From NCBI GenBank assembly GCA_946800325.1, contig OX326957.1:51703798-51767797 (forward strand): a stretch of 64,000 nucleotides of DNA. Direction: 5' to 3'. Each line of letters begins with the position of its first letter. The first letter of the stretch is position 1. This document shows, in pieces, positions 1,662 through 63,733 of this stretch. Source of the DNA: Luzula sylvatica (lineage: Eukaryota > Streptophyta > Magnoliopsida > Poales > Juncaceae). The notes under the pieces were generated by a model. That model searched no databases. It worked only from the letters and a program-made list of their open reading frames with translations, and was not told the origin of the DNA. The position numbers and the translations under genes were made by a program.

Positions 1662-2637
1662 TGTTGGGGAATATCCCCGGCCCCGGGCCCGCGCAGCGGA
1701 TATGTAGGCCCGGTCCGATTCCCCGATTCCCGAGATCACGCCACGACTTCGAGGGTACGATGCAAATAGAAGGTTAGATCCATACCAGTTCCAAATTGAT
1801 GGAACACGAAGGGTTGATCGCTGCCTCCTATTCCTTCGGTCACGTTGGTGACTTTACGCGCGTCCCATACCGTGCGTCCTTTACCGTTCGTTCCCGTTCT
1901 TCGATCCTTCGGTTCGATCACAACGGAGAGCCCCAAGTGTTGCTCCTCCACACGTATCCACCTTGAGTCGGAAGACGCCGGACACGGATACACCTGCCTA
2001 GACGATGTATCGGTGCACTTGCTTGATCTCGATCGATTCTCTATTAATCTCTCTTCGTGCCTTTTCACTCACAAAAGATCAAATCTGAATTTGCTCTTTT
2101 CTTGTGTCTTGGGCAGAATATTGCTTTGAATTACTTCTGAATTCCTTAGTGAAGATGAGAGAGAAAATCCTATTTATACCTAATAGGATAAGGATTAGCC
2201 AAAAGGCATGTATATCCAATATACACCCTTTCACACAGAAAACTGTATGAACCTGTTCAGTATTCTGTCCAGACGAAATTGATAAATTTCTCTGACAGAA
2301 AATCAACCAACACGAAAGTTGTAGATAATCTTATTATCTACACAACCCAATTTGGCCCAGCCCAATTGGAGTTCGTATGCAAAAGTTATGACTGTTTTAC
2401 TAACTGTATGTCATACTGTTGCACCCTTTCGGTATTTCACAGAAACGACACTTATACTTCGTTCATATGAAATATATTTCTACATGAAGGTTATAGATAA
2501 TCTAATTATCTATCTTACCCAATTTGAACCATTCAAATCGGATTTTCCTACTGAAAGATATGGCTACGAATGTACGACTACATTCGTTTATCCTTGTGTA
2601 CACTTTTACGGTTGATCCTGAAACTGTATTTCCTTCA
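1662..2637 (-). repeat. 3' LTR of the copia element
   Basis: On the minus strand it begins TGAAGGAAATACAG and ends in TTCCCCAACA, so it has TG...CA ends. A TATA-like GTATAAATAGG on the minus strand (about 2170-2180) fits the U3 promoter. It matches 12802-13777 over the whole 976 bp with one difference seen. Confidence 0.93.
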
Positions 2638-2650
2638 GTCTCCCACTCAA
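2638..2650 (-). other. Polypurine tract of the copia element
   Basis: The minus strand reads TTGAGTGGGAGAC directly against the 3' LTR. This is the usual place and form of a copia polypurine tract, which primes plus-strand DNA synthesis. Confidence 0.75.
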
Positions 2651-3950
2651 TTTCAGATCTACCTAAAAGGTACTCATGCATATCCAATACGCACGATTTT
2701 AGAGAATATAGCTCGCGTATCAAATACCAAGCTATGCACATCCTATGTGCCAATTTTATGATCAAGCCCGACTTAGTACGACTCGTTGTGTGACCATGTA
2801 GGTTCGACTTAACGATGGCAGTAGGTTGTTTCCAATACCTACAAGCTCATGAGCGGGATCTAGTCACTCCATCATAGCTACCCATGTTAAACGAATAATG
2901 ATTGTGATCATTGTGCCTATCTCGAATAGCGGTTACTAGTTCTCTTGTTAGCGATATCCGTTAATCAAAAGGCATGGTAATAGTCATCCTTATAATTTGA
3001 TTAACTACACTTATTCCCCGATTCCGAGTTGAGTTAACAAATTTCAATCGATATTAACCATTAATATCATTGACTGCGGCCGCAGGTTTCGTTAATCGAC
3101 TCATCGAGCGGCGCCTAAGAGATATCTCTTCCTTTCGGAATAAACAATTCCTATCTTGGAGACTCACATTGAATTCCGTGTTTCGGACAATACCCAATGA
3201 TGACCCTTTTAACTCCCTGTTACGGTGAGCGTAAGATCATATCAAAGCATTGTGTTACGCACGAAACGCAATCAATGATCCCCTCAAGTTTGAAGAATCT
3301 AAAACCCCATCCGTCGCAAGTCCATCTATAATGACTAAACCATGTCATGGTCTCGCGGCTTCGGTCATATCCAATACATGTAACCTAACATATATCTACG
3401 TTCCCGATTCGACAAACTCCTTTGTCCCATGATTAGCAAAACATAATCATCTCCTCGGCAAACGTACTAGTGTACGCGTTCAGTCTATTCCCTTGTAATA
3501 GTAATGCTTCTCTCTTAAGCAAACTGACCCGCGACTAGGGATGTTTAGAAATGACACTTTAAGTGTGACGGTTTCGCTGCACATAGTCCTCAACCATGTC
3601 GACGTCCACACAAGTTCAAATCAAGGTTCATGTAACAATCATATTACACAACCCAGCACACAGTTTTCATATAAGGTGAATGCATATTAATTTAAGTAAA
3701 CAAAATTTTAAAAGGGATGCATTCATATGGACTAAGTATTTGGGTGATACAACGTTTACCTATGGGTATCTCCATACCCATAACCTGCGAGGACTATCGT
3801 ATTAGATAACTACACTCTACTCTCTTCTTCCTCCTCTAGGTATCTCCATACCCATAGTCATCGCATGACAGTCACGCGCGACTAGAGAGAGCGGTTTTGT
3901 AAACGGGTCCGCACGTTCCCGCTAGTGTTAATCATCATCAGGATTGGAAC
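2651..3950. other. Decayed copia 3' internal region, no gene
   Basis: No open coding stretch is visible between the purine tract and the RNase H remnant. A short motif, TATCTCCATACCCATA, occurs twice (about 3767 and 3840). The rest looks like eroded element sequence. Confidence 0.5.
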
Positions 3951-6397
3951 ATTTCCAATACCTACGATCACATCTTTTCACAAAATTTCATGGATCAAAT
4001 GAAATTTTCTGAGTATTGGCTAGAAGTGGTTGTGACCTCGGCATTTTTGGCTTGTACTATTGCGTCTAACGCAATAAACAACCATAAATCCGATAACTCG
4101 TGACTACTAGAGTTTGGTCATGTATCCTTGATCCATACCACTTCCTTTTGCGATTAATAACCGCAATATACTCGCCACCGTAAATAGAATCATAAACTAT
4201 TGGTCTTGTGGAACCTTTCCACATAACCGTGTTTTCATTTAAGCAAAACATGTACACACTTTGTGATCGAAAGTCGTGCTACATATTTGGACGTGCTTCA
4301 TCTTTGGAAACTGTTGTTTGTTATAACTCTTTATAACCAACACGTCCTCCACACCATTATAGATAATAAATCCTGAATTCTTTCGCAAAGTATTCAAGGA
4401 TAAACTTCACCTCTATCAATACAAATCTCGATGGGTTTTAAATATACATAACCATTATGTATATATTTGTATAACCATTATACAATCACAAGAGTTAGTC
4501 TCATGTAATCGAATTACATTCAAACTCATGTGATTCCCATGAATTTTATTGACGGTGAACTAGACGCTTTATTTGTATGACAGATAGCCACATACATATC
4601 ATGACAGATATAATAGATCCTAACATCAAATGTAAGGCATCATATTATTACTTTTCGCGCTGCTTGATGTCTCACATCGAGCCGTTGAAAATTTCTGCCA
4701 TTCGACATTTCGATTTATCGCCTCCAAGGAGTTTACATGTTGAAAACCATTTTCAACAATATGTCGATATATGTGCTATAACATAGAACGAGAAACTTTT
4801 TAGATCTATCCTATAGATCTTCACGCTTAATTCATAAGCGGTCTCGTCTAAATCCTTTGTCGTTACAAGAAATATAGCGCAGCTCCCACTAACATTCATG
4901 TGTACACAAAGTTTCCATTCGTTTCGACAATTTTATAACAGTTTATAATTTTGTCAAAACGAATATTCCAATTCCGAGAAGCTTTCTCTAATCCATCATA
5001 TGGATCGTTAAAGCGTGCATATCTTATCCCCGATTCTTATGAATCGACAAAACCGTAAGGTTGTGTCAAGTACACATCCTTTCATAAAATTTCTGTCAAG
5101 AAATTCGGTTTTGACATCCATTTGGCCACATCACATAGTCATAATACGCGACCATGGCAAGCAGAATTTCGAGAATGGGAAAGCATGGCAACAAGCGAAA
5201 ACGTTTCTTCATAGTCCGACTATGAATTGCATGAAACTTTTCGCAAAAAGCCTCGCTTTACATATATGCGTATTCCTATCCATGTCGGTTCTTCATCTTG
5301 AAAAACCCACTCACATTTCACGGGTCTAACCTAGAAAGTAATGAAATCAAGTTCTAAACTTGATAATTCACATGGATCGAATCTCAGACTTCATGACACC
5401 ATGTCATGTGGAATCAACTTTTCATAGCATACTTGTAGGATATCGAATCATCATATGATTGCAATCTATCATCATTAGCCACGATAAATCCGTATTTACC
5501 GGCTTATGATATAGCCTACTTGATCTACGAAAAATTCCTTTGTGTGTTCGACTTGCGTTCATCAACTCTTGATGAACCTATGTCAACTTTCATCGGTACA
5601 ATGTTCATTTTTAAATCACGAACTCTTTCGAGATTTATTCTACTCCCACTAGCCCGCATAGAGAGAAATGGCACCAAGTTCCAAACTTGTGCGCATCTAG
5701 TCCTCCTCCAAGAAGGCATCTCTTCGAGCCACGAAAATCTCATTTTCGTCGGGACGTTTTAACTAATACCCTTTAGTTTCCTTAAGGATAAACGAACAAT
5801 TTCCAGATTTGGGATTGAGTTTAACCGAAACAAATTTCGAAATACACTCACGTCCTCAAATCTGTACAAGTGACAACTTCGGAACCATTCCGATCCATAT
5901 CTCATATGGCGTCTTTTGTACCGATTAGAAGGTTTATGGTTCATATCTTATATGCAACCATTCATTAGTGCCGCTGTCTCAAGGGCGTATCCCCAAAACA
6001 TTTTTGGGAGATCCTATTGACTCATCATTTATCGAACCATGTCCAACATGCGTTCATTTCCTCTTTTCGGACACATCTCAATGTTCCGAATAAAGGCAAT
6101 CGTGAAACGATTCCACAATCATAAATGATCATCAATATTCATAACTCAAATATCGCCTCTTCGATCCTATCGAAAGGTTTAGCTCAAATACTCGCCTTCT
6201 CGATCCTATCGAAAAGCTTTGATTTTCTTGCTTAGTTGATTTCGTATTTCGTTTTTGAAACTCTTTGAATCTTTCAAAAGTCTCTGTTTCGGCACGCATT
6301 AAATAGATATTTTCATATCTACTTTAACCATCCATAAACTTAACAAAATACCGATAGCCTCCTCTTGCCTCGGAACTTATCGGAACATCATATGTAA
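3950..6397 (-). pseudogene. Copia pol remnant: integrase, reverse transcriptase, RNase H
   Basis: The minus strand holds recognisable but broken copia pol. Going downstream along it: YRYFVKFMDG then FERFKEFQ (integrase core, about 6350-6240); FWGYALETAA (integrase end, about 6000-5965); CEWVFQDEE and, in another frame, DYEETFSLVAM (reverse transcriptase, about 5320-5150); and DSIYGGEYIA (RNase H, about 4190-4150, compare DSTTEAEYIA). Stops and shifts separate the blocks. A further integrase piece (LLGKTTNGIILQS, then GERSSELLE) lies at about 10395-10323, beyond the inserted Helitron. The order IN-RT-RH places it in Ty1/copia. No protein can be made from it. Confidence 0.75.
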
Positions 6398-6429
6398 ATA
6401 TAATTTAAATTAATATAATGCAACCCTTT

Positions 6430-8200
6430 TTGCGCTTCTCTCATAGAGCCACGTCACCCTCTTATTCTGGGCCGTTCGATCAAGATCGGACGGTCTAAAA
6501 TTGAATGAACCCGGCTTACATGATCCATGTTATGTTGTTATGGCACGGTTCATATGGACCAAGTCCACCCGGCCTTGAAATGGCCTCAGCCACTTACACC
6601 CCCTTCCCCTCTTCTCTCTCTTCATTTCGACGACAACAAAGAAGAAAAAATCGACGGAAACCCTAGAGGCGAAAAGGGCGAAAAAGAGACGAATCTGACG
6701 CCGAACAGGCGCGACGACGCCGGTGGACGGCGACGATCTCCATGGCAGGAACGTGCGTCGCTCTGCCTCTCTCTTTCAACCCTCTGAAGGAATCAAAACC
6801 CTAGGGTTTTTTGGCGGTTTCGTTCGAGGTCTTTGCGTCGCTTCTGACTTTTTTGCCAGGGACGCGTCGCCTCCCTCTGTCTCTGTTCGAACTGAAATCC
6901 GTCGCCACATAAGTTGGATCCAGTGGTCTCAGTTTTTGTCTCGGTCAATCTCTCTTCTCTGTCAATCGCTCATGTAAGTTTCTCTTGCTATTTTGCTTTG
7001 TCTACGTTCTCTTCTGATTTTGCTTCTCTTAGTGGGTGATTAGGTAGGTAAGAGTTGGTTTATTTTGTTTGTAATTTCAGATCGACAAACAGAAGATCTG
7101 ATTTTGCTATTTTCTAATTAAGATTTAGAATGGTTATGCTTTGTTTAATGATTATCCTATTTTTATGCAGTTGGTAACGACGAATCGGGGCTTCAAATCC
7201 CACATGCCCTGTCAAATATCGAAGTTAAAACTCTAACCTCAATGTTGCTGATTTTTGGCCAATATTAGTATTTCGACTTATTTTTTTGTCATTTTTTCCG
7301 ATGAAATAATTAGGTTCCCGAGAGGAAAAGACCGGACAAAGTAACCAGGACCTGTTTTCAGATCTCAAGTGTGCACCATCTGATTGCAGGAGCTTTTTTG
7401 TAAGTTTCCGCATCACATTGAGGTTCAGTTTGTTAATTTATTATTTGTTTTTTTTTATTAATTTCAAAAATCTCAGTTTTTTTTTTCAGATCCTAAAGTG
7501 ATTGTTAATTGAATTGGTGCCGTGGATCGATTGACGCGGATTTAGTCGTTGACCATGCACACCAGGTTTGTTCTATTATAAATGTAACTAATTTGGATGG
7601 TTATATGATTTTTTTTATAAGGTGTTTTTTGTAATTTTGTAATTTTAATTTTCGATAATGTATAGCCACACAAGCACAAGTTTCATTTGGAGCCATAAAT
7701 TCGGCAAAGCCGTTTAATATCCCCAATTTTTTATATACTGGTAAATCAAGTAAAACATTTTTTTGGACTAAATTGCATATATAAATCGTGCTAACAATTT
7801 ACTTTATCTATCTTTTTAGATGCATCATCCTCAAAAGTTGAGAAAGAGTATATCCAACCTTGCGTACGTATTTATTCACAACAATACCACTGGAGATCAC
7901 CAGTTGAATTTAATCTTTATAAATTTATATTTTTGTTATGATTATAATTCGAATTATCCAATAACTCTTCCTTTAAGACCACCCTATGCAGGGGATCCAG
8001 GTACTCGATCAAATTTTCTAATCCAACAAATCAAATTCTTAATTTCGATTTGGTTTAAATTGTGATTTTGATTTTGATTTTTGAAATTATAGAAATTCTC
8101 AACGAGGAGGAATTTGGTGATATTGCATCTACGAGTTTATTAACAACGAAGACCCAATCAAATTCAGCATGTGAACTTGGCCTGACAGTATGATTTTTTT
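6430..8200 (+). other. Captured gene-like segment in the Helitron
   Basis: This part is richer in G+C than its surroundings and holds short open stretches (for example 6527-6787 and 6723-6977) separated by T-rich blocks ending in CAG or AG, as plant introns do. No product is recognised. It may be a piece of a host gene's 5' region carried by the Helitron. The homology is unknown. Confidence 0.35.
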
Positions 8201-8478
8201 CCAAATTGACCCTAAATTTCGTACAAATTAGGAAAATAATAATTTAAGTATCGTTGATAGGAAACAAGAGAGGATTCCGCAATGTTTTTCAGTTTTTTTT
8301 TTCACAATTTTTGCGGCTCTTCTCAGAAAATCATGCCGTAAGCATTTCTAAGGGTATCCGTGACATTTCTAATTTTACAATTTATCTTTGAGTATTTGAT
8401 ATTTTCAGATTTTTTAAGTGTTTTTAATTTTTTCACAGTTCAGGGGCTTATTCGATATGGTCCTATTTTTTACTTTTC

Positions 8479-9060
8479 TGAATATCAGGGTATTTTTGAA
8501 ATTTTTATATTTTAATAGCGTATTTTTGAAATTTTCTTTTTCTAGAGGGGCGTATTTGATATTTTAAGGTTTTATGCGGGTATTTTTGAAAATTTTGCTT
8601 ATTAGAGGGGTGAATTTGATATTTTTAGATTGGAGAAAGATATTTTTGATATCTTGAAATTCAGAGAGCACATTTGCTATTTTTAGGGTTTTTATAAGTC
8701 ATTTTGGAAATTTTCGCCTCTTAGAGGGGTAATTATGATATTTTTATGATTCGGGAAAGTTGTTCTGAATATTGGGGTATTTTTCAAATTTTATATTTTA
8801 ATAGTGTAATTTTGAAATTTTCATATTCTAGAGGGGTGTATGTGATATTTTCTGGTTTTATGAGGGCATTTTTGAATTTTTTGCTTATTACAGAGCTGAA
8901 TTAGATATTTTGTGATTTTAGAAAGGTATTTTGGATTTCTATAAATTTAGAGGGGGCACATTTGTAATTTCTCGGGTTTTTACAAAATATTTTTGAAATT
9001 TCTTGCTTTTAGAGGGGTAAATCTGATATTTTTCAGATTCGAGAAATGCGTTTTGGGATA
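8479..9060 (+). repeat. Two-copy tandem repeat, about 290 bp, in the Helitron
   Basis: The block from GAATATCAGGGTATTTTTG (about 8479) to GGGAAAGTTGTTCT (about 8768) is repeated from GAATATTGGGGTATTTTTC (about 8769) to about 9060. Within each copy a shorter theme (TATTTTTGAAATTTT then AGAGGGG) recurs roughly every 60-70 bp. The copies have diverged and hold no ORF. Confidence 0.7.
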
Positions 9061-9224
9061 ATTCAGCTTCTTGCTCAGATTTTGCTATTCCTTTAGATTC
9101 TTAATTTTCTGTATAAGGTTGAAATAATGGAGGGAAATGTATTTCTGAATTTTGGACTGATTTGTTAATTTTTCGTTTTTGATAGGGACATGTATGAAAA
9201 ATCTCTTATTTTATGAACTAACAA

Positions 9225-9673
9225 ATAGGAGTGTTCAAACGGTTCGGTTTATTCGGATACCGAACCGAACCGGTCGAATTCGATTTGATAGGTTCGGTTT
9301 TTTGGTTTATTCGGTTTAAAAAATGGTATTGTTCGGTTTATTCGGTTCGGTTCGGTTTTCATGTGATGAAAACCGGTTAAACCGAACAGACCGAATAATA
9401 TTTCATTTTTCGTAATTTTTAATATAATAATGTTAAAATATAAAAAAATAATATAATTTTTTTTATCAAATAATACAATTATATTTTATAATATGTATTT
9501 ATATTTTTTGATAATAAAATATATTTTTTCGATAAATTTATTTTTATTTTAAAGTTACAATGTTTCTTATTCGGTTCAACCGAATAAACCGAATAAAATT
9601 CGGTCTATTCGGTTCGGTTTAAATTGGTTTGGCCTTATGCCGTTCGGTTTGAACCGACCGAATGCACACCCTT
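9225..9673. mobile_element. hAT-type MITE
   Basis: A 449-bp element flanked by the 8-bp duplication ACTAACAA (9217-9224 and 9674-9681). The ends are inverted: GGAGTGTTCAAACGG on the left against GGGTGTGCATTCGGTC read from the right. Both arms are built from GGTTCGGTTTATTCGG-like units, so the ends can pair over a long distance. The centre is AT-rich and there is no coding capacity. The 8-bp duplication places it with hAT elements. Confidence 0.85.
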
Positions 9674-10322
9674 ACTAACAAGTTGAATGTTATTGACCAA
9701 TGTCTTGGATTTAGCTAGGTTTGGTTTATCGGGTCGGGTTTGGTCCAAATTAATTAGAGAAAAAAAATTGCGCATCTTTTTACTTGAAGGGATACTACAA
9801 TTGGAAATTATGTTTCTACTTTTGGGCATCTTTTTTGTACAAAAGGTATACTACAACATTGTTCAACAAAATAGAATTCTCAAACAAAATAAAAAATATA
9901 TATGACAACAATATGATCAACACAAATTAAAACCCATCTTATGCAGGTACACAATTGGAAATGCTACAACACTGTCTAGCAAAACAAAAATCTCAAACAA
10001 AAAATGAACATATACTCGCACCAAAAGCAATTTATGTGTACTTATTTGTACTAATTTTCAAATATTCCTTTGATCTAACTTTGAATTTGTGTTCTATTCG
10101 TGATGTTAATTTCCATCTTTCATTATTTATTACAACAAATGCGATACAAAATCCTACATTTTTTTGTGCATTTATATAAATCATCATTTTTAACAATTAA
10201 ATGGCATTGTCTCGGTTTTGTTCGATGTTTTCATAGATTGTACTGATATTCATCGAAAAAATACTCATGCCAAACAATTGTTTTTACAACGAACCCGTGC
10301 AATTGCGCGGGTACCACACTAG

Positions 10323-12010
10323 TTTCCAATAATTCGCTGGATCTTTCTCCAATACTTTGGAGAATGATGCCATTTGTCGTTTTGCCTAATAAATAAGTAT
10401 TGCATTAATCAATCAAATCTAATTCGAATGATTCTAGCATTCCATCACATGGAATCTAGATACGCGTATCTCGTTTATATGGCCAAGACGGCAATGCCAA
10501 AAGAAGCAATCAACTTCTAGGTTTAATCCTCCTCGGATTTCACCATTCTTTGAGTCACTAGTTTGGACAACTCCTTGTCCGAACTTTCCATTTTGGAAAA
10601 CATTTTCCCAAAATACCCTTAGACATACATTTCTTTCGATCCCGCTTTTGAATTACAAGGACATCCACGCATCTATATGCATTGGATTCCACGGAAACTC
10701 TGAGCATCTCCAATTCAAATTTAAATCGCATCATATGCAATTTCGGGATCGACTTATCTATCGAATGCATATGATATTCGGTCACGAACATCAAATCTCG
10801 TACCATCAACACACGAGTGTTAATCAAAGACCCATAAGGCGTCTCAAAATTAACCTACTCTTTGAGCCGCATTGAGTCATTCAACGCGCTCTAGCTCTTG
10901 AAACTATTTCATGAGCGTTGTGTTTTACTTTCATATACACCCGAATTCTCAAAACAATTTTGAGAAATTTGCGTCTATACATGCCACCACAAGGCACGTA
11001 ATATTGTTCGATTCCTTCTTAAGTTTATCGAACCCGGCCTTCTCTAAAGCCAAAGCCTCGAGCCCCGAATCTACCATTTCCGTGTCCAACACGTTCCTTT
11101 AAGTCTAAGAACTATTCTTTGACTATCAAGGTTAATAACGGTAATTCCGACCCAAAAGCCATCTATCATATCGATCTAATCGATATATTTGGTGTTGCTT
11201 GAAAACATAATTCTAAACGGATGATGAAGATTAATTCCTAACCGTGCGTACTTAATCTATATGCTTATATGATAATTATATGATAGTGTTATTTTATCGA
11301 ATCGATAACCCTCATATCGATACGGGACTCCAAGTCCATAACACTCAAGATCCATATATCACGATCCTCCCATAAGTTGCTTTGGCAGACGAATGGGATC
11401 TCGCTATTTAGGTAGGATTATATCCAATCGCATCCAATGCGACTCTTGAACCTTTATAGGATTTCGGTGATGAATCGTATCCAATACAATCCCAGTTCCG
11501 TGTGTGCATCCTATCTATGCCCCGAACTTCCAATCAAGTCGGCTTTGGCCTCAACCCTTACTGGCTAGAACGGTTAAGTCACAACCATACTCATCGTATC
11601 GTTCAAATAAACTACTAATAAGTCGGCTTTGGCCTTAACCCTTATCAGTCCCTATTTAACGCTTGCCACCCCGTCGATGACTACAATAACCCATGTCGGC
11701 TTTGGCCTTAACCCATGTGAGACGTAGTACCGATCATAGTGGTTGTGAATATGGAAGGCATTTCCATGACTTAAATATTATGAGGGATCATGCCATTGCA
11801 CGTTTCTAAATCCGTGACATAATCCAATTATATCACTATCACAAGATTTTCATAAATGCATATGTATTTATTTGGGAGTCTAATTATTCTAAATAATTAT
11901 CTAATTATATGCTAGTATGATTGATGCCGATCAAATCGATATAAAGAACTCAATATTCCAAGTTGTGTAGCCAAAGTTATCACGAAAACAAAATCAGCAA
12001 CCAGAAACCA
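10323..12010 (-). other. Copia internal region, gag side, decayed
   Basis: After a short integrase remnant (10323-10395) no open gag or protease is visible. A motif GTCGGCTTTGGCC followed by TTAACCC or TCAACCC occurs three times (about 11538, 11622, 11695). The rest has only short chance ORFs. Confidence 0.5.
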
Positions 12011-12547
12011 GTCCGTTGTAACGCAACATAGTCCGTTACAACGGACCTCCAGTATTCTTGGCATTCCGTTACAACAGAAGTCCAGTCCGTTACAACGCTA
12101 TTTATTTCGGAGTTTGGCCAAATTTTGCCAGAAACATGTCCGTTACAACGCAACCTAGGTCCGTTACAACGCTATTTTCTGCAAACTTTCGTCCAAATTT
12201 CCAGATACCAGTCCGTTACAACGCAACATACAGTCCGTTACAACGGACAAACTGTGTAGAGCTCCGTTACAACGGACCCAGTCCGTTACAACGGACTCCA
12301 ATAGACACCCTAGGCATCCCCGCAACCTCGTATCAGATACAAGGTCCGTTACAACGGACTCCAAGTCCGTTACAACGGAATATGCAGTTTTCACGGTCCT
12401 CCTCACACCCCCGCATCCTATACAGGGTCCGTTACAACGGACACCAAGTCCGTTCTAACGGAATATGTGTTTTTTCGAAAAAATCTCAATTTTCTGTATC
12501 TGCTACAGTGTCCGTTGCGACGGACTGAGCAGTCCGTTATAACGGAC
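12011..12547. repeat. Palindrome array 1: 16 copies of GTCCGTTACAACGGAC-like units
   Basis: Sixteen 16-mers start at 12011, 12031, 12064, 12085, 12138, 12159, 12211, 12233, 12262, 12281, 12344, 12365, 12427, 12448, 12510 and 12532. They fall into eight pairs whose members are 20, 21, 21, 22, 19, 21, 21 and 22 bp apart. Many units are full inverted repeats (GTCCGT...ACGGAC), while others end ACGCAA or ACGCTA. The array lies about 240 bp inside the element from the primer-binding site, in what would be the leader before gag. No known repeat name is recognised. Confidence 0.9.
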
Positions 12548-12788
12548 TATGCGATTTTTGAACTGCTGTTTTCGCTCGTTTCCAAAACGATCAATCATGA
12601 AACCTTTTCACGATTATTCCTAGATACTCTCAATCAACTATTGATCGATCTCTAGCGAATTTCACTTGTGATTTTAATGGAATTTGACATTCTTAATATG
12701 TAACATCATGCAAACGGGTACGAACTTTGATAACCCGTGCGTATATCTAATATACGACTATGATTCGACCCTCGAATCGATGGCGATC

Positions 12789-12800
12789 GCTCTGATACCA
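12789..12800 (-). other. Primer-binding site (tRNA-Met type)
   Basis: The minus strand reads TGGTATCAGAGC one base from the end of the 5' LTR. This is the sequence complementary to the 3' end of plant initiator tRNA-Met used by copia elements, and it fixes the element's orientation. Confidence 0.92.
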
Positions 12801-12801
12801 C

Positions 12802-13777
12802 TGTTGGGGAATATCCCCGGCCCCGGGCCCGCGCAGCGGATATGTAGGCCCGGTCCGATTCCCCGATTCCCGAGATCACGCCACGACTTCGAGGGTACGA
12901 TGCAAATAGAAGGTTAGATCCATACCAGTTCCAAATTGATGGAACACGAAGGGTTGATCGCTGCCTCCTATTCCTTCGGTCACGTTGGTGACTTTACGCG
13001 CGTCCCATACCGTGCGTCCTTCACCGTTCGTTCCCGTTCTTCGATCCTTCGGTTCGATCACAACGGAGAGCCCCAAGTGTTGCTCCTCCACACGTATCCA
13101 CCTTGAGTCGGAAGACGCCGGACACGGATACACCTGCCTAGACGATGTATCGGTGCACTTGCTTGATCTCGATCGATTCTCTATTAATCTCTCTTCGTGC
13201 CTTTTCACTCACAAAAGATCAAATCTGAATTTGCTCTTTTCTTGTGTCTTGGGCAGAATATTGCTTTGAATTACTTCTGAATTCCTTAGTGAAGATGAGA
13301 GAGAAAATCCTATTTATACCTAATAGGATAAGGATTAGCCAAAAGGCATGTATATCCAATATACACCCTTTCACACAGAAAACTGTATGAACCTGTTCAG
13401 TATTCTGTCCAGACGAAATTGATAAATTTCTCTGACAGAAAATCAACCAACACGAAAGTTGTAGATAATCTTATTATCTACACAACCCAATTTGGCCCAG
13501 CCCAATTGGAGTTCGTATGCAAAAGTTATGACTGTTTTACTAACTGTATGTCATACTGTTGCACCCTTTCGGTATTTCACAGAAACGACACTTATACTTC
13601 GTTCATATGAAATATATTTCTACATGAAGGTTATAGATAATCTAATTATCTATCTTACCCAATTTGAACCATTCAAATCGGATTTTCCTACTGAAAGATA
13701 TGGCTACGAATGTACGACTACATTCGTTTATCCTTGTGTACACTTTTACGGTTGATCCTGAAACTGTATTTCCTTCA
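12802..13777 (-). repeat. 5' LTR of the copia element
   Basis: The partner of 1662-2637, with the same length and one difference seen. It is followed by the CAATC duplication at 13778-13782 and then by the interrupted MULE gene. Confidence 0.93.
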
Positions 13778-13782
13778 CAATC

Positions 13783-15959
13783 CACTATAGTTCTTGACTG
13801 GCGACTGGTTAAACGAATGGATCGAACCACCTCTCTCGCCAGAGACGGAATTTGCTTTGTGTTCGGCTACTATCTTCTCCACATCCGGCAACTCGTGATC
13901 TTCAATGTAGGCTGGGTCCTGCTCGTCAACCATAGCCGTCATCTCGAGCACTGTTTACGAGAATAAAGGGAACTGATTAATAAAATCTTTTATTATCATT
14001 GAACAGTGATGACTAACCTATGTTCCCATGTTCGCCTCCTACTGGCAGATAGATTTCCTCCCCTACTTTGAGACCCAAATCGTCAATGTTGTAAATAGTG
14101 GGCTCTTTCAATCCGCTACTCTGCCCCTCATTTCCCAAGTTGACCGATGCGTTAGATTCTGTGGAAAAATCCATAGAAACAAAAACAACGTTATTCAACT
14201 TCAACAGAACGAACTATCAATTTTTTTCAGAAAACTAACCTGACGGTAAGGGGTCGAACTTTTGCTTCTTTTGACGATTAGTTCTGCTCATCGGCATCTC
14301 CAAGTAATCGTCCTCTGATTCGTTGTCTTCTGACTCCTCATCGAAATCTGCGCATAGTTCAATAATTTATCAAATTTCACGAAATTATTTATCAATAAGA
14401 GATGTTAAACCTTCGACGTGAACCGAAGATTCCAACTTCTGAGTACACTTAGGCCTAGGTATGTTTAACACTTCTGAGAATAATTAAAAGACAAATTTAT
14501 TCTACAGTTCAATGGTAGAGATAATAAGTAAGGTATATGGACTAACCTTGAACTCCCCCCGTTTTCTGCGCTTGGAGACGGGGAGAACGACGCGTTGGGC
14601 TGCAACGACGCATCGTCGCAGCAGAAGGCTCAGCTACCCCCTTCCCCTTAGTCGCAGCAGACGGTTCTCCTACTGCCTTCGCCTTTTTCCTCGCAGCGGC
14701 TAAATATGTTCAATAGAGTTTAACATCAGTTGTTAACTTGTGGGAGAACAAAACCTTTTTTGCGGAAATTACCAGTGTTTGTTTGCGTCGCTGCGGGTGA
14801 CCTTGAAGACTGCCTGCTTGTATTTGACCTTGGGGGCGTTCGGTCCATCATGTGACGGAGGTGAATCATCGTCTCGTGGCCATCGGTAAGCATCTGCTCC
14901 ATTGTGTGGACTAACGCCTTAGCGTGTGTCTCTCCGGGTGCTTCTGTGAAGAAGTACTTCCTTGCGTTGCCTGTGTCGTGTTCGAAAACCCAAGCCTCCT
15001 CCCTCTCTGGTGTTAAACATACCACCATCCTCGCCGGATCCATGGACAATTCGATCTTGTTGAAGGCCTCTCTCGTTTCCTCAGTGTTCAATTGCCAACA
15101 CCTGTAACGCGGATAAACCCTAGGAGTAATCTTGATCAGTTCGGGCTTGGTGTGCTCGTAATACCAAACCTGTAAATAAGATCAGTCAATTAAAAATTTC
15201 CTTGACATGATATAATCCTGTAAATAGTGTTAAACATACCAGTAGAGCGAAGGAACATCCGATCAAGGTTGGCGTCGAGTTCCCAGCCAAATTGCCGGAA
15301 ATGTAACTGTGCGCTTTTGCTCCGATTTCAGGAATTGATTTTTGCATGAAGTCAAAAACTGCCTGACCCCATGCATACTCCCACAGGTTGTCGACATCGA
15401 CGGCGTAATCCCAGAACTGTTGCGGGGTAAGCCGGTTGCTCATCGGGAACAAGACAGTGGTAAACAGGTACATGGTGAACATGGTTAACCATTCCTTTGG
15501 AGTTACTGTCTTCTTCTCTCCCAATTCGTAGTCCAACTTGGACTCGTAATCGACAGCCTCAAGGTGCGAATCTCTATTGAAGAATTTTTTGGTGATGTGG
15601 TTGTCAACCATGTGACGAGGGGATATGTCTACTGGTTGACCGAAACCACGTAACCCTAGTACGAGGCATGCATCGTGGGCGGAGAAGCGGAGGTTCTTAT
15701 CGTTGACAACGAAGCACCCTATTAGAGGGTTCCAGTGACACATCACTCTGGAAAGGTACTCCCGTTGCATGTTAATCGGTGGCATGGAGAGGAAGTTCTG
15801 GAACGGCCATTTGTTCAGTTCCTCCACGTGCTCCGGTGTGAGTTTCCTCTTCAAGAAGTCATTGTAGAACTGAGAGAATCTTTTAGGGCTGCAACGAGTT
15901 TTTACGGTGAATGTTGAATCTCTAGGGGTTTTTTTCTGTTGTTTCCGTTTGGGCGCCAT
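13783..15959 (-). pseudogene. Plant-mobile-domain-like N-terminal part of the MULE Ulp1-like gene (5' exons)
   Basis: Exon 1 (15959-15240) begins with ATG, then basic MAPKRKQQKK, then a domain with NPLIGCFVVNDKNLRFS and LVLGLRGFG, resembling the plant-mobile-domain/DUF1985 group that precedes Ulp1 domains in MULE proteins. It joins in frame to exon 2 (15169-14773) across GTATG...ACAG. Later exons encode a Lys/Arg/Ala-rich stretch (about 14700-14548), an acidic-then-basic stretch (about 14345-14243), and Asn/Ser/Gly-rich sequence (about 14160-14020 and 13945-13783). The gene is then broken by the copia element and resumes at 1656. Joined across the CAATC duplication, the reading frame continues through a duplicated FNQSPVKNY unit, so the insertion broke an otherwise continuous exon. 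The function of this N-terminal domain is not established. Confidence 0.7.
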
Positions 15960-16524
15960 TGTTGTCTGAAGAGAAGAAAAGGAAGAGGAAAGAGGCGAGT
16001 GAACAGCAGAAGGGGAATAGGTGGATTTATATTGACACCATTAATGGCGAAAGGTGGGTGGTGAGGGTGTGCATTGATTGGCAGTGAAGGGGCGGGGGTT
16101 AGAGTCACGATGCGTATCTTTTGGTTTGCAAGGCGGCAAAGTCGTGATTAGAATCTTTTGAACAAGCAAGAGACGTGACGTTTAACAGTGTACCTTTGCA
16201 GCCTTTCCCACGTGGTTTAACACCTCTAAAAGGTGCGATTTGACTCGTGTATTTCAGGGAGATGTAAAATATTGATGGGCTTCAAAGTAATGGCCTGTGA
16301 AAAAATAAGATAAAAAGTAATGGGCTTTCAGATATTAATGGGCTGTGAAATATTAATGGGCTAATAGATGTTAATTGTGCTAATATTAATTAGTCATGAG
16401 ACTCCAAAAATAAGTTTGATTCTACTGATAGCAGGAATTAACATTAAAACAACAGTTTTAATTAGGAAACATAAAAAAAAAAATATTGGGGCTTCGTATC
16501 AAATAAAATGATAGCGGCCTTGTT
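15960..16524. other. Spacer between the two MULE genes
   Basis: A non-coding interval upstream of the Ulp1-like gene and downstream of the transposase. It has repeated ATTAATGGGCT-like motifs (about 16275-16380) and no ORF. It presumably holds the promoter of the Ulp1-like gene, but no clear TATA box was fixed. Confidence 0.5.
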
Positions 16525-19257
16525 TCAATTGTTAAATCGTGAAAATTTCATCATTAGATCGGTGTTTGAAATTCCCGGGTCAGAGCCTTCGAGCTATGGG
16601 TGGAAAACAAGAATAAATTAGTATATCCATGTACAGTTAAGCTGAAATGGAATTGTATGTATAAACTTACATGGATGACAGGGGCTTTTGTAGCTTGCTT
16701 CTTCCTCTTCATTGAAGCAATCTCGACCTTGGATTTTAGCCTGGTTGATCTGGGTCGTCCAAGACATTTTACCCGTTTAGGATCATAGATTTTAACATCA
16801 TCTTCTTCGTCTTCCGAAAGGTATTCTTCATCAGCGACGTCTCGGACAATTTTGTTACTGTCGCATATGCGAATCGCCATTTGTTCGAACCAGCCAAGCA
16901 ATTGGTTCACCGCTAAATTGTCCCTGTAAGTGCACTCGATCATGTCGACCATGTAGCTGTGTGCGCGTGAATATGCCGAGTCGTAAGTGCAAATGTTGCG
17001 TTGAACTTTGGTGGAATTAATTTTTATTCTGGTGTGAGTTCGTATGTAGTCTTTTTGCCATCTAGGGAGAACGTAGCAATTGGGGATATCTTGAACGACA
17101 TGCTGACGATAAATGGTCAAACCATGTCGACACACTATTCCCTTGAATTGGAATAATAAGCGTTCGCAATAGTACGTTTTCTGGTCTGAGCACTATTGAA
17201 CGGTGTATGTTCTACCATCTGATGTGTCGACGACACAGTACAGATTAATGCCGTCTTGTTCGGACAATTTTTCCGTGTGACACCCGATTAGCGCCTTTAT
17301 CTCGTCCTGGAGTAAATAGAAAATCCGATGGGTGTACAATTCTGAGAACTGCTTCTCGAAGGATAAAGCGGAAACAAGCAAGGGAGCACGGTTATTGCAA
17401 TTGAAGTCCTCCATCCTCTCTTTCTCCCATTTCGATTGCAATGCTAGTTCATATTTTTCAGCAAAATTCAATAGAGACGTGGACGAATTGACGTAACCAT
17501 CGAAAAAAGCATTCATCGACTCGCTTCTTTGTGTGGTCGACATACCCGCCCAAAAATATTTTCTTACATAAACTGGAACCCAATGAGTCCTTATTGAGAA
17601 CATACGTTCGAGCCACTTGAGACTAGCTTTGTTTTGGGGATCTTCGATTAACTCCTGCCAACCTTTCTCGAACAGGTCAACTTCAGAAGTGTCGTACACT
17701 AATTGACAAACCTGCGTAAGAAAGGTTTGTAATAAACTCAAAAAACGATTAAACCACAATAAATTTGTTACCTTATGTATGAACGCATCTTTGTTTTCTC
17801 CCCATCCAGCTTTGCCCGGCAATTTTTTCATTATGTGCCACAAGCACAAACGATGACGAGACTGAGGAAAAACAGTGGAAACCGCAGAACATATGGCAGC
17901 GCACTGATCAGTTATAATTGCAGGAGGGGGTACTCTGTTCATGCAGTCAAGGAAGGTCTTGAAAAGCCATTCGTACGTCTCGGTGCATTCGTCAGCTAGT
18001 AATACGCAAGCAAGCAGAATAGAATGTCCGTGGTGGTTGACACCCACGAATGGTGCAAAAGGCATGTCATACCTACGATTAGGTTAACGTAAGATTGAAC
18101 AGTTTTAAATTTGACAAAAATGTATACCTTACTTGTTTGTTAAATAAGTGGTGTCAAATGTTATAACATCTCCATAAAACTGGTAAGCAGCGCGGCTACG
18201 ACCATCTGCCCAGAAAACATTGCGCAATCTCCCGTCATCGTCAATTTCACACAGGTAAAAGAAATTGGGGCATTTGTTTTGACGGTCTCTGAAGTATTTC
18301 ACCAAAGCGTTCGCATCTCCTGCTGCCAGTTTCAAGGACCTACGAGTTTGAACATGATTGCGCAAATCCCGGTCAGTGAACATGCAATTCTCGTGCCTCC
18401 CAGCTTGGTTGAACATAGCGTTGAAAGAGCGGTGCTGCGGGATCCCTGATATAGGAAATTAAATGTGGTTTAACAATCAGTTAAACCAAAAATGAGTACA
18501 CAATATCGAACATAATGGGGGTTTGACAGTTCAGCAAAAATGCTGGGATCCCAGATATGGAAAGTTAAAAAAATGGTTTAACAGTAGTCTGTTCAACGAA
18601 AACTGAGTACACACTATCGAACATAATGGGGGTTTAACAGTTCATCAAAAATGCTGGGATCCCTGATATGGAAAGTTAAAAAAGTGGTTTAACAGTAGTA
18701 TGTTCAACGAAAACTGAGTACACACTATCGAACATAATGGGGGTTTAACAGTTCATCAAAAATGCTGTTTAAACTTAACCTGAATCGTCGTTTATTTCTA
18801 TCTGTTTCTTTACGAATTCAGGAATGTTACGGTGACACCTCATGTAACGAACAGCATCAGGGCGTAAATCATGGTTATGATCCAGTTCGATATGAGAGAT
18901 GGTCCACAACCCATTCAAAAGGTAGTCCTTGACAATGATTTTTGCAGGACAAGCCGTTCCTTGGTAGCTATTCCTCCTTTTTCCGTATCCGTCTAACTTG
19001 GGACGTGTAAGGGGTTTCTTCTCCTTATTGCAAGCAAACGTGGAATCAGAAGTTTGCCCGTAAAAATTGTGCTTGGAACGTTTTACAATGCCAAAGCCTT
19101 TGATGCAGGAGTACTTCAAATAGAAAAGATATGCATCTTCGCGTGATTCGAATCGCATCCCAACGGAAGGGTCTGGCAAAGTGTGTTCTTGGGTAGCTAA
19201 ATTGGGGGGGGTAAAATCATGGTGATCACTGAAAACATCATTGTACAAATTCTCCAT
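16525..19257 (-). CDS. MULE transposase, FAR1/FHY3-related, one in-frame stop
   Basis: My exon model is 19257-18780, 18445-18133, 18072-17772, 17711-16671 and 16593-16525, all with GT-AG introns and matching phases. Exon 1 has a FAR1-type DNA-binding domain (FYLKYSCIKGFGIVKR, CPAKI, ELDHNHDL). The MULE/DDE domain follows: ITFDTTYLTNKY (first Asp, split by an intron), AIITDQCAAI (second Asp), CLWHIMKKL, and TTQRSESMN (the likely Glu). A SWIM-type zinc-binding end is suggested by FQFKGIVCRHGL. A TAG at 17190-17192 falls in frame between the DDE and SWIM parts, with open frame on both sides. Unless read through or spliced around, it removes the SWIM and C-terminal parts. The role would be binding the family's ends and catalysing cut-and-paste movement. 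Confidence 0.8.
18433..18762 (-). repeat. Three about 110-bp tandem repeats in transposase intron 1
   Basis: Units run about 18433-18540, 18541-18651 and 18652-18762. Copies 2 and 3 are close to identical and copy 1 is more diverged. Each carries GGGATCC(C/T)TGATAT-like sequence, which on the minus strand contains the acceptor (ATATCAG then GGATCCC) used for exon 2, so the splice acceptor is present in duplicate. Confidence 0.8.
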
Positions 19258-19516
19258 TGTTGAACGCTGGAAGGGGGGGAGTGATGGAAAATGAGAGAAG
19301 GAAAAGAAGGAAAGAGATAAACAGGAGGGAAAAGGTAAATGATGAAGAAAGTACTGTTTTTCGAAAAAAAGCAACGTGGGATGGACGTACGTGCCAGGAA
19401 ACGTTGAAAAATGGGAACAAGTACGCCGTGTGTAAGGTTGAACAGTGATGTGATTTTTGTGCAGTGAGCTGTAAACCACTGAAATGGTGCTCTTGGTTTA
19501 CCACCTATGCTTTGGT

Positions 19517-37701: not shown

Positions 37702-37702
37702 A

Positions 37703-37715
37703 TTGGTATCAGAGC
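37703..37715 (+). other. Primer-binding site of the non-coding element
   Basis: TTGGTATCAGAGC begins just after the 5' LTR and is complementary to initiator tRNA-Met. Confidence 0.88.
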
Positions 37716-38019
37716 GAAACTATGATGAATCACGGTTTAAATGGAAGAGAAACGAAGTATATAATTTCGGATAATTTCGTTTTTTATCGAAACGGGTCAC
37801 AAACGGGTTACAAAATTAGAGAGAAAGAAAAGTTTATAGAAAATTTGTACTATCTCTCTATACTCAGTGAGTAATTCCGGACACATCTATGGTCTCCGTT
37901 TCGTCAACGGACGTCGGTGGCACCGTGGCCCGCCGACCAGACAAGGGACCAGAGAGGAGACGCCATGAAAGAATATAATCCCTTCTATCATTCAATGGAT
38001 CTGATGGCTGGTCGTAATG

Positions 38020-40694: not shown

Positions 40695-40699
40695 AATGC

Positions 40700-44925: not shown

Positions 44926-45823
44926 TTGGTGTCCATACCGGTGGGGTGGAAGTCCAACAATGTTGAGAGAAGATAGGGACTAATTAATCGGTATTCTGAA
45001 TAAAACATTTGAATTCTAAATCTGATGCTGATGAGATCAATTAATCGGGAACCTACCATTTATTTATTTTGGAACGTATCATATGCTTCAAAAAGAAAAA
45101 TAAGTGTGTATTTATTGCATAATACTTGTGGGACAATATTTAACAATCTCACTGAATAAGGAGACTTGTTTTTTTTTTTTAAGATGTTTCTCTAGATAAT
45201 TAGTATGATATACTTATTTTTTAAATTATCAATTATGCAGATTATTTTTCATTTTTACTTGTAATGTTTTGGATAAAATTATTATTTTATGATCATAGTA
45301 AAATTACAGTCAGATAGAAGTCTAAAATCATTAACATAATTAATATAAAAAAGAAAAAAACCAAGTGGAAAACAATGATGTCTAAACTTGTCTTTGTAGG
45401 AAGTGCATTACAATAATTTATGAAGATTATTTTTCATTTTACTTGTAATGTTTTGGATAAAATTATTATTTTACTATCGAAAATCGATGTTTTAATTCAA
45501 ATTTAGGAAATTTTAGAATTTTTGGGCTAAATTGCAAAATGACACAAAATTGAGCAAAATTCATGATAGAAAGACCTTTAATAAATCAATTATTGGATAT
45601 TTGTATGTTATTAAAGTGTTAAACATATTGGATCTGTTGAAAATTGGATTTTCGGAACGAAACGACAAAGAAATCAGGTATTGAGAAAACTGGCAGATTA
45701 GAGTTCGTTCGAACGGACTAATCGGGTTTTTCAAAAAAAAAAAAAAAAAAAAATTGGCAACCAAATTTTTTTTTCTGTCAAAAATGCCCAATAATTTAAA
45801 ATTTCCAATTTATAAATTCGATT
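44926..45823. other. AT-rich intergenic with a diverged direct repeat
   Basis: Two copies of about 52 bases (TTTTTCATTTT...ACTTGTAATGTTTTGGATAAAATTATTATTTTA) lie at about 45243-45295 and 45427-45478. An (A) run of about 21 is at 45731-45752. One isolated 16-mer of the array type, GTTCGTTCGAACGGAC, is at 45703-45718. Confidence 0.5.
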
Positions 45824-62173: not shown

Positions 62174-62174
62174 C

Positions 62175-62760
62175 TGTAGGGTTACGCACACGTTTATCAA
62201 AGTGTGCAGCGGAATTATTTTCGCATGCGTAACCTAATTCTACCGGGATCACGCCCGAAAACCATCCAAAAATGAAGAGTTGGAGAAAATTACCTCGTAC
62301 AAGTTAGTACGTGTCGATTTCTTCTCCAAATCCGTGAACCTTCTCCAAGGAATGCTCGTGCAATCCCTCTACTCGTGTCCACCTTGATTTCGACCGATCG
62401 GAATCGTTGACGTCGTTCTAGTCGCCGTCACGATCAATTCTCTCATGAACTTGCTCGAATCTCCCTCTAAATCACTCTAGATCTAATCTATTTTCTGTGG
62501 AAGAAGAGAGAGAAAGCGGCGACTCAAAACCCTAATTTCCGAAAAGAGGCTTAGGTTAAAACGAAATCAGAATTATATATATATAGGAATTAGGTCAGTT
62601 CGAACGCACCTAAATGGTTCGTTCGAACGAAACCAGTTCGTTCGAACCCACTTAAATGGTTCGTTCATTCTGACTATCACGAATAAGTCCGTTCGAACGC
62701 ACTTAAATAGTTCGTTCGAACAAACCCAATTCTGACTGCAGATTTGCCTATTTATATAAA
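62175..62760 (-). repeat. Copia 5' LTR fragment, minus orientation
   Basis: It ends TGTAGGGTTACGCACACG (the LTR 3' end read in reverse) beside a primer site. 62175-62547 matches the LTR at 49352-49723 on the other strand. From 62548 the sequence differs from that LTR: it holds a TATA-like CCTATATATATATAAT (minus, about 62572-62585) and palindrome array 2 just upstream of it. The outer LTR boundary is not fixed. Confidence 0.65.
62594..62725. repeat. Palindrome array 2: GTTCGTTCGAACGAAC-like units
   Basis: Six units start at 62594, 62617, 62636, 62659, 62687 and 62710, in three pairs each 23 bp apart. The pair spacers are alike (CTAAATG or TTAAAT(A/G)). Units fit GTnCGT-TCGA-ACGnAC with some worn ends. 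On the minus strand the array lies about 10 bp upstream of a TATA-like box. Confidence 0.8.
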
Positions 62761-62799
62761 TTCTTCCAAGTTAATTCTTAAGCCATATTTTCTTTCATC

Positions 62800-63733
62800 G
62801 GCGTCATTATCGAGCCCCGTGCAGCGGATTGTGAGGCCCGGTCCGACTCGATCCTGAGGACCACGTCGACGACTCGAAAGTACGAATCATGAAAGGCAAC
62901 TAAAACCTATGAAATTAACTCTTAATTCATAGAGAATCATACCACGTGAAATTGATCACGGAGACGGGTTGATTCTTGCGTAGTTACTGTTGTCCTTACT
63001 TCGACTCCGGCGACACACACGTCTCACGCCCGTGCGATTTGACACGTAATTCGAATCTCCGATTTGTCGTATACAACCGGAATTTATCCGGTTTGTCTCC
63101 GACCTTGCTCGACCTTGCTCTCGATTGATCACACCAGAGAATCTCAATTGAGATTCCTCTACTCGTATCCACCTCGAGCTCGCGTCTTTCGGTTACGCGT
63201 GATTCCCCTAAAATCACCGTAAACTTGCTCAAAATCTTGAATCTCTAATGGATTTCTCTCTTTTCTTGTCTCACAAGAATTTCCTCTCCCAGATCCAGAA
63301 TTATAACCAGCAGAAGAGAGAGAGAGAAAAGGCACAGATCTTATAATCAAAGCCTCCATTAATGGGGCATTAATGAGTATCAAAACTGCTAATCCAGAAT
63401 TTGGATCACAGTGCGTCATGACGCACGATATGGTGCGTCATGACGGACGTGTCACGAGTACTAGATCTAGCCGTTATAATTGTGCTCCGTCATGACGGAC
63501 TGAACTGTGCGTCATGACGCACCACCGTCATGATGCACTGGATGGTGCGTCATGACAGTATACTCACATATTGGCTTATTCAGAAATAAATTACTGTGCG
63601 TCATGACGGACCATGTAAATTCTGTGATATTTTGCATATTCCTATTATGCATCCAATCGTTCCGACGAATACGTACGTTCATCTACCCTCATATGTACAA
63701 TTTACTAGTTGATCTGTAACTATATTTCCTTCA
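62800..63733 (-). repeat. LTR fragment related to the 1662-13777 element
   Basis: The left part (GAGCCCCGTGCAGCGG, GTGAGGCCCGGTCCGA) matches the corresponding part of that LTR (GCAGCGGATATGTAGGCCCGG). The right end (GTTGATCTGTAACTATATTTCCTTCA) matches its outer end. The last 15 or so bases on the left (TGTTGGGGAATATCCCC in the other element) are missing. It is a diverged family member with array 3 inside its U3 part. No internal region is attached. Confidence 0.65.
63411..63611. repeat. Palindrome array 3: GTGCGTCATGACGCAC-like units
   Basis: Seven units start at 63411, 63433, 63485, 63507, 63523, 63545 and 63596. Three pairs are exactly 22 bp apart, with 6-bp spacers. Units fit GTnCGT-CATG-ACGnAC. 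On the minus strand, which is the LTR's own direction, a TATA-like TTATAAG lies about 65 bp downstream (about 63345). Confidence 0.85.

What the first reader, a model, noticed from the sequence alone, without database searches (positions are those of the whole stretch)
12011..12547. Paired palindrome arrays with a shared GTnCGT-nnnn-ACGnAC scaffold in different LTR elements
Seen directly: sixteen 16-mers (GTCCGTTACAACGGAC type) in eight pairs, members 19-22 bp apart. Two other LTR fragments in this window (62594-62725 and 63411-63611) carry arrays of different 16-mers with the same outer scaffold and the same paired spacing (23 bp and 22 bp). The half-site GTnCGT is constant while position 3 and the 4-base core change together between families. 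Inference: this looks like a site for a dimeric DNA-binding protein, placed two helix turns apart, whose specificity has diverged between families. It is not explained by the usual parts of a copia element.
Basis: partly seen in the sequence, partly recalled or inferred. Interest (0 to 1): 0.85.

Follow-up and report, generated by a model that had tools for sequence, protein, structure and literature searches.

The report
Palindrome arrays in plant copia elements
Three families of plant jumping genes each carry a dense array of short mirror-symmetric DNA boxes set in pairs about 22 bases apart, most likely docking sites for a regulatory protein; similar arrays are known from one other group of plant retrotransposons, so this looks like a new variant rather than a new kind.

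Summary
The arrays are real: 13 exact GTNCGTNNNNACGNAC matches against 0.02 expected, 12 of them in three arrays of 16, 6 and 7 sites, paired 19-23 bp apart. Two points need correcting. The main array is not in an LTR: it lies in the internal leader, 254-790 nt after the 5' LTR of a young element without recognisable coding (1662-13777, minus strand). And position 3 does not follow the core; it varies within families. The other two arrays lie in LTRs, upstream of TATA-like motifs (loose evidence). In the leader array, duplicated units keep their palindromes (59/64) while spacers drift (53/79), so the boxes look selected. Best reading: clustered binding sites for a dimeric protein, acting as enhancer or, in the leader, gypsy-insulator-like. 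RNA hairpins are not excluded (pairing 171 vs 173 of 224). The known counterpart is the Sirevirus palindromic motif, reported absent from classic copia (PMC2829016); element 1 fails the Sirevirus junction tests made. A new variant of a known kind. The genome-wide test did not complete in five tries.

The parts
1662..13777 (-). Element 1: complete LTR retrotransposon, 12,116 bp, 5-bp target-site duplication CAATC (1657-1661 and 13778-13782), no long gag-pol ORF
   Evidence: LTR pair and flanks; no minus-strand frame of 150 aa or more inside it; 36 open fragments scanned against Pfam at E 0.01 give one gag_pre-integrs trace; a weaker Peptidase_A2_2 match at E 0.021; both below Pfam's cut-offs
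12802..13777 (-). 5' LTR of element 1 (976 bp); partner copy at 1662-2637 differs at one base
   Evidence: 99.898% over 977 aligned positions, one of them a flanking base; TATAAATA at 13318
12789..12800 (-). Primer binding site TGGTATCAGAGC, one base (G) after the LTR end
2640..2647 (-). Polypurine tract AGTGGGAG, followed by AC/TG at the 3' LTR
12011..12547 (-). Family 1 array: 16 palindromes (sense GTCCGTTGTAACGGAC type) in eight pairs, in the internal leader 254-790 nt after the 5' LTR
62175..62797 (-). LTR of family 2 (623 bp), one G and then a PBS-like TGGTATCAGATC beyond it; start set by eye at a TGAAAG; truncated element
62594..62725 (-). Family 2 array: six palindromes (GTTCGTTCGAACGAAC type) in three pairs 23 bp apart, 9-140 bp upstream of a TATA-like run starting at 62585
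   Evidence: another TATA-like match at 62758 lies upstream of the array
62798..63733 (-). LTR of family 3 (about 936 bp, 3' end uncertain or truncated), related to LTR1
   Evidence: 75-79% over three blocks, at the start, in the middle and near the end
63411..63611 (-). Family 3 array: seven palindromes (GTGCGTCATGACGCAC type), three pairs 22 bp apart and one single, 65 bp and more upstream of TTATAAG at 63346
   Evidence: the stricter scan for TATA[AT]A found none in this LTR
45703..45718 (+). Lone family 2 type palindrome about 1.1 kb upstream of the gag-type ORF 46830-47981 of a decayed copia element whose 3' LTR (to 49724) shares its last 367 bp with LTR2

Best explanation
The boxes are clustered DNA binding sites for a dimeric host transcription or chromatin factor (or a few related ones), amplified by tandem duplication as cis-regulatory modules of three copia-type families. 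In families 2 and 3 they would form the U3 enhancer upstream of the promoter; in family 1 the cluster lies in the leader, where it would act as a downstream enhancer or insulator, in the manner of the su(Hw) sites of gypsy or the leader enhancer of Drosophila copia. Two dimers about two helix turns apart would bind together. Shown: dyad boxes, pairing, positions, and better conservation of the boxes than of spacers in the leader array. Inferred: protein binding, its dimeric nature, its effect on transcription, the U3 assignment. Unknown: which protein.
For: 13 exact sites vs 0.02 expected. Families 2 and 3 lie in LTRs upstream of TATA-like motifs, the place where Sirevirus palindromic boxes lie. 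In the leader array, duplicated units 2/3 and 5/6 keep 59/64 palindrome bases but only 53/79 aligned long-spacer bases (Fisher p 4e-4; with units 6/7 added 89/96 vs 78/124, p 2e-7, unit 6 then counting twice). The leader array is present in a young insertion (one difference between LTRs) without recognisable coding beyond traces, as expected of a cis-acting part. AACGGA is invariant in 16/16 sense sites of family 1. Spacing within pairs is 21.6 +/- 1.1 in 14 pairs. The two phage contigs found with the paired scaffold carry it inside replication-initiation genes; that such arrays are usually origin iterons bound by the initiator is recalled, not tested.
Against: The outer three bases of the left half-site vary in family 1 (8 T/8 G, 14 T/2 A, 11 C/5 G) while the right half is nearly constant: a strict symmetric dimer would constrain both. 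The TATA evidence is loose: family 3's LTR has no TATA[AT]A, only TTATAAG, and family 2's LTR has a further TATA-like match at 62758 on the far side of the array; no chance control was made in this AT-rich DNA. Phasing between pairs is weak. The arrays fold far better than shuffles as RNA (z -10.1, -7.6, -6.0). No candidate protein was found. The sites were defined by similarity to a consensus, which favours their side of the conservation comparison, and only unit pairs whose spacers could still be aligned were compared.
Confidence: 0.52

Rival explanations
1. RNA hairpins: neighbouring palindromes pair with each other (16-bp stem, 3-7 nt loop) in the transcript and act in silencing (small-RNA source), RNA stability, packaging or dimerisation of the genomic RNA. 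All three arrays would be in the genomic RNA (leader, or U3 at its 3' end).
For: Folding z-scores -10.1, -7.6, -6.0. Sense RNA folds better than antisense in two of three arrays (-237.1 vs -182.0, -60.7 vs -51.6, but -88.0 vs -95.8); family 1's usual centre GU allows wobble pairs on the sense strand. One pair (63523/63545) pairs across 13/16 while its members are poor palindromes (8/16). Maize Sirevirus palindrome clusters attract small RNAs (Bousios 2016 as described in PMC10760457).
Against: An array of palindromes is expected to fold well whatever its role. Within-site and cross-site pairing are equal overall (171 vs 173 of 224, summed by hand); pair 63485/63507 keeps symmetry inside its sites (15/16) better than across (13/16). 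Two families have the array in the LTR upstream of TATA-like motifs, as a promoter element would be.
Confidence: 0.27
2. Neutral tandem amplification: a palindrome prone to slippage or hairpin-mediated duplication spread inside LTR and leader with no function.
For: Family 1 units are plainly tandem duplicates with periods of about 74 and 82-83 bp.
Against: Boxes are conserved while spacers of the same duplicated units have drifted; three families share the half-site and the pair spacing.
Confidence: 0.14
3. Element-encoded recognition: a protein of the autonomous relatives binds the boxes of its own family only, as VANC proteins do in VANDAL elements, and the boxes diverge with the protein.
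For: Family-specific arrays in non-coding DNA that differ between related elements, and an array kept in a copy without recognisable coding, resemble the VANC target pattern described in PMC5735166 (passages) and PMC10398659 (abstract).
Against: No extra ORF was recognised in the elements of this window, though they are defective; the autonomous partner is unknown; the word palindrome does not occur in the main text of PMC5735166.
Confidence: 0.05

Closest known systems
Sirevirus palindromic repeated motifs (RM; Bousios et al. 2010, PMC2829016; Results and one Discussion section read)
   Same: Copia elements; 8-32 copies of a family-specific palindrome of 10-20 bp; in the LTR shortly before the TATA box and, in some, in internal non-coding DNA; similar motifs shared by divergent elements
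   Different: Core CGG-CCG there (except Tnd-1), GTnCGT-nnnn-ACGnAC here; none of the nine of 13 RM consensus sequences that I checked holds the half-site. Internal copies there lie in the linker before env, here in the 5' leader. Element 1 fails the Sirevirus junction tests made. The paper reports RMs absent from classic copia. Pairs at about 22 bp are not mentioned in the sections read
Drosophila gypsy su(Hw) insulator and copia leader enhancer (PMC7168160, passages)
   Same: Array of repeated protein binding sites in the 5' untranslated leader of an LTR retrotransposon; 12 sites in 350 bp there, 16 sites in 537 bp here
   Different: Insects; binding protein known there; the su(Hw) sites are described there as degenerate, with no mention of paired palindromes in the passages seen
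Tnt1 and Retrolyc1 subfamilies defined by U3 regulatory regions (Vernhettes 1998, Araujo 2001: seen only as citations in PMC10760457; variable U3 regions of subfamilies also in a passage of PMC10794571)
   Same: Related copia families that differ in their U3 regulatory motifs
   Different: No shared half-site or paired architecture known to me (recalled)
VANDAL/VANC target motifs (PMC5735166 passages; PMC10398659 abstract)
   Same: Short motifs in tandem repeats in non-coding DNA, diverging between related families
   Different: DNA transposons (recalled class); targets of an element-encoded protein; the motifs given there are not palindromes

Membership tests
Sirevirus RM arrays | Palindromic motif, at least eight copies per element, in the LTR before the TATA box | tested here: inconclusive
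   Family 1: 16 copies but in the leader; families 2 and 3: six and seven copies in LTRs before TATA-like motifs
Sirevirus RM arrays | CGG-CCG core signature | tested here: not met
   Cores are CGTTnnAACG, CGTTCGAACG, CGTCATGACG; family 1 has CCG...CGG one base further out; Tnd-1 in the paper also lacks the signature
Sirevirus genus | PPT octamer AGGGGGAG, about four copies, mostly near the 3' LTR | tested here: not met
   Element 1 only: 0 copies of AGGGGGAG; AGTGGGAG at the LTR and also at 4890 and 5650. Families 2 and 3 have no PPT junction here to test
Sirevirus genus | AT/TG and CA/ATTGG attachment sites | tested here: not met
   Element 1: AC/TG and CA/G/TGGTATCAGAGC. Family 2: one G before the PBS. 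Family 3: no junction to test
Sirevirus genus | RT/RNaseH phylogeny in the Sirevirus clade | not tested
   Element 1 has no recognisable RT and no reference set was at hand
Ty1/copia (Pseudoviridae) elements | 5-bp TSD, TG..CA LTRs, initiator-Met PBS, copia-type gag-pol | tested here: inconclusive
   TSD, LTR ends and PBS met for element 1; coding only a gag_pre-integrs trace below the Pfam cut-off; the decayed relative of family 2 at 46830-47981 has Retrotran_gag_2 and Pol_BBD above cut-off
gypsy-type leader insulator | Blocks enhancers, bound by su(Hw) or a similar protein | not testable with these tools
   Needs reporter and binding assays
VANC targets | Element family encodes a sequence-specific anti-silencing protein | tested here: inconclusive
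   No such ORF recognised in the window's copies, which are defective

The most novel reading that the evidence does not exclude
Several non-Sirevirus copia families share one operator architecture, paired dyads with a constant GTnCGT half-site and a family-specific 4-base core, read by one family of dimeric proteins whose specificity has radiated with the elements, so that each retrotransposon family runs on its own private regulatory code, kept even by coding-less copies that depend on that family.
Probability: 0.13. Interest if true: 0.72.

Novelty: new variant of a known kind. Interest (0 to 1): 0.42.

Why it matters
Palindrome arrays in copia elements were described as specific to Sireviruses and suspected to be both promoter parts and small-RNA triggers, with the trans-acting factor unknown. 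Paired arrays in elements of which at least one fails the Sirevirus junction tests, that one with the array in the leader of a young copy without recognisable coding, suggest that the device is wider than one genus, and give short, testable 16-mers for DAP-seq, EMSA and small-RNA mapping.

Tried and rejected
Considered and set aside: (1) That the first array is part of an LTR: rejected, since the LTR ends at 12802 and the PBS lies at 12789-12800. (2) That spacing proves helical phasing: suggestive over all distances, weak between pairs. (3) That covariation would tell protein from hairpin: undecided. (4) Known plant boxes recalled from memory: family 1's AACGG resembles the MYB3R/MSA core, family 3's TGACG the TGA/as-1 half-site; no call tested this, and the families would then need different factors. 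(5) Literal search of the palindromes in papers: one hit, an unrelated cancer paper. (6) The paired scaffold in other collections: spacing 22 in IMG/VR gave 2 stretches, spacing 21 in prokaryote genomes gave 5; other spacings were not scanned; both IMG/VR cases lie in replication-initiation genes; the five prokaryote cases were looked at as sequence only. (7) Gag homologues: 177 proteins with E <= 1e-10, 120 listed; those listed with an organism name are from flowering plants; best 87% identity, to an unnamed JGI contig; host species not identified. (8) Literature: ten searches listed no paper that I recognised as describing such paired arrays outside Sireviruses; I saw listings, and opened seven papers in part. 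The library lacks most subscription journals, and Bousios 2016 itself is not held.

Full report
Observation. The scaffold GTNCGTNNNNACGNAC occurs 13 times in the window against a mean of 0.02 in 100 dinucleotide shuffles. Twelve matches lie in three arrays and one is alone at 45703. Allowing deviations, the arrays hold 16 sites (12011-12547), six sites (62594-62725) and seven sites (63411-63611); these are 29 of the 39 rows, the other ten being one poor match at 12332 and nine family 2 rows in an overlapping register, dropped by hand. Fourteen pairs can be written, with spacings 20,21,21,22,19,21,21,22 in the first, 23,23,23 in the second and 22,22,22 in the third; one site of the third is unpaired. 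Only 12 of the 29 sites match the scaffold exactly.

Where the arrays are. Element 1 runs from 1662 to 13777 on the minus strand: two LTRs of 976 bp with one difference, a 5-bp duplication CAATC, a PBS TGGTATCAGAGC one base after the LTR, and a PPT AGTGGGAG before the 3' LTR. The first array therefore lies inside the element, 254 to 790 nt after the 5' LTR, not in an LTR as reported. Of 39 open fragments of at least 45 codons on the coding strand of the internal region, 36 were scanned against Pfam (the three overlapping the array left out); at E 0.01 one matched, gag_pre-integrs at 0.00025 (21.2 bits, cut-off 28.4), and a Peptidase_A2_2 match at 0.021 (15.3 bits, cut-off 27) is weaker still. 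The element is thus a young copy without recognisable coding beyond traces, presumably non-autonomous. The second array lies in an LTR of 623 bp (62175-62797), 9-140 bp upstream of a TATA-like run starting at 62585, but the same LTR has another TATA-like match at 62758, on the other side of the array. The third lies in an LTR of about 936 bp (62798-63733), upstream of TTATAAG at 63346; the stricter motif TATA[AT]A is absent from that LTR. LTR1 and LTR3 are related (75-79% over three blocks, at the start, in the middle and near the end); LTR2 shares one 25-bp stretch with LTR3.

What the sites look like. In family 1, read on the element's sense strand, AACGGA is invariant in 16 of 16 sites and CGTT nearly so (15 or 16 of 16 per base), but the outer three bases of the left half vary. 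Position 3 among exact half-sites is C in 22 of 22 in family 1 and mixed in family 2 (T4, G2, C1) and family 3 (G7, C3); with inexact half-sites family 1 is mixed on the left side too (C11, G5). This contradicts the claim that it changes with the core. Three families share five of eight half-site positions; random half-sites do so with probability 6e-5 to 3e-4 in register and up to 1.6e-3 with sliding. The arrays had been picked for looking alike, so this is a guide, not a test.

Is it selected? In family 1, pair units were duplicated in tandem (periods of about 74 and 82-83 bp). Spacers of units 2/3, 5/6 and 6/7 are still alignable (z above 3 against shuffles). Between units 2 and 3 and units 5 and 6 the palindromes are identical at 59 of 64 bases but the long spacers at only 53 of 79 aligned bases, gaps left out (Fisher p 4e-4); adding units 6 and 7, 89 of 96 against 78 of 124 (p 2e-7, unit 6 used twice). 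Units 7 and 8 gave 28 of 32 against 21 of 27 with 19 gap columns; the end of the last spacer had been set arbitrarily, and this comparison, which would weaken the contrast, was left out of the test. The boxes thus appear to be kept while their surroundings drift. A bias remains: sites were defined by resemblance to a consensus.

Protein or RNA? Paired palindromes can be two dimer sites about two helix turns apart, or a 16-bp hairpin with a 3-7 nt loop. Watson-Crick pairing within sites (171 of 224) equals that across pairs (173 of 224) (sums by hand). Single pairs point both ways: 63485/63507 keeps symmetry within, 63523/63545 across. RNA folding is far better than shuffled (z -10.1, -7.6, -6.0), as an array of palindromes would be in any case. 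Sense folds better than antisense in two of three. All 26 successive distances concentrate near 10.5 bp (R 0.62, 0 of 5000 jittered sets reach it), but the 12 distances between pairs do so less (R 0.60, p 0.013; distinct values R 0.53, p 0.06) and prefer 11.3 bp. I lean to protein binding because of the conservation of boxes over spacers, the LTR placement in two families, and the record of such arrays as binding sites or proposed binding sites in retrotransposon LTRs and leaders (PMC2829016; PMC7168160), but the margin is modest. The paired scaffold at spacing 22 also turned up in two phage contigs, in both inside a gene of the replication-initiation class; this is convergence, and shows only that such paired dyads arise where a protein is likely to bind.

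Known counterparts. Bousios et al. 2010 (PMC2829016; Results and one Discussion section read) described palindromic repeated motifs in 13 Sireviruses, in the LTR before a TATA box and in the linker before env, and stated that they are absent from classic copia. Later work tied maize Sirevirus palindromes to small RNAs (Bousios 2016, not held; described in passages of PMC10760457, and PMC5311732). Element 1 fails the Sirevirus PPT, attachment-site and PBS-junction tests; family 2 fails the one junction test that its remnant allows; family 3, related to LTR1, has no junction to test. The motif lacks the CGG-CCG core. RT phylogeny was not tested. For the leader location the closest parallels are insect ones: 12 su(Hw) sites in 350 bp of the gypsy 5'UTR and the repeat in the copia 5'UTR.

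Limits. All conclusions about the plant elements rest on one 64-kb window. The genome search did not complete in five tries, and I used no collection described as holding plant genomes. The host species was not identified.

Noticed in passing
L001:3454-3545 and L002:1263-1346: Two IMG/VR phage contigs each carry four GTnCGTnnnnACGnAC palindromes 22-30 bp apart inside a replication-initiation gene next to a DnaC-like helicase-loader gene: probable phage origin iterons.
   Followed up: partly
window 49358-49724 and 62174-62540: Two LTRs share their last 367 bp at 98.9% but BLAST found no similarity further upstream, and the copy ending at 49724 lacks the array. It looks like a chimeric LTR or U3 replacement.
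   Followed up: partly
window 13477-13649 (LTR1, before its TATA box): Two copies of another palindrome, TAGATAATnAGATTATCTA, 172 bp apart in the LTR of element 1, within a duplicated block of 64 bp.
   Followed up: no
window 11520-11720: Three copies of GGTTrAGGCCAAAGCCGAC further down the leader of element 1.
   Followed up: no
window 4890 and 5650 (minus strand): Two further copies of the PPT octamer AGTGGGAG inside element 1, 2-3 kb before the 3' LTR.
   Followed up: no
window 37089-40695: Another LTR element (LTRs 97% identical, TSD AATGC) with a CA/ATTGG PBS junction like Sireviruses but PPT AGTGGGAG, and no palindrome array found in its LTR; it has only single imperfect scaffold sites at 37620 and 40613.
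   Followed up: partly
L003:5006-5042 and L005:6024-6060: Two contigs of one Spirochaetaceae MAG with tandem ACGTTCGTCGTGACGAACAA-type palindromic repeats.
   Followed up: no
window 127-642 and 14726-19497: Peptidase_C48 (Ulp1-type) fragment at 127-642; ORFs at 14726-19497 that look like a Mutator-like/FAR1 element (recalled resemblance, ORFs).
   Followed up: no
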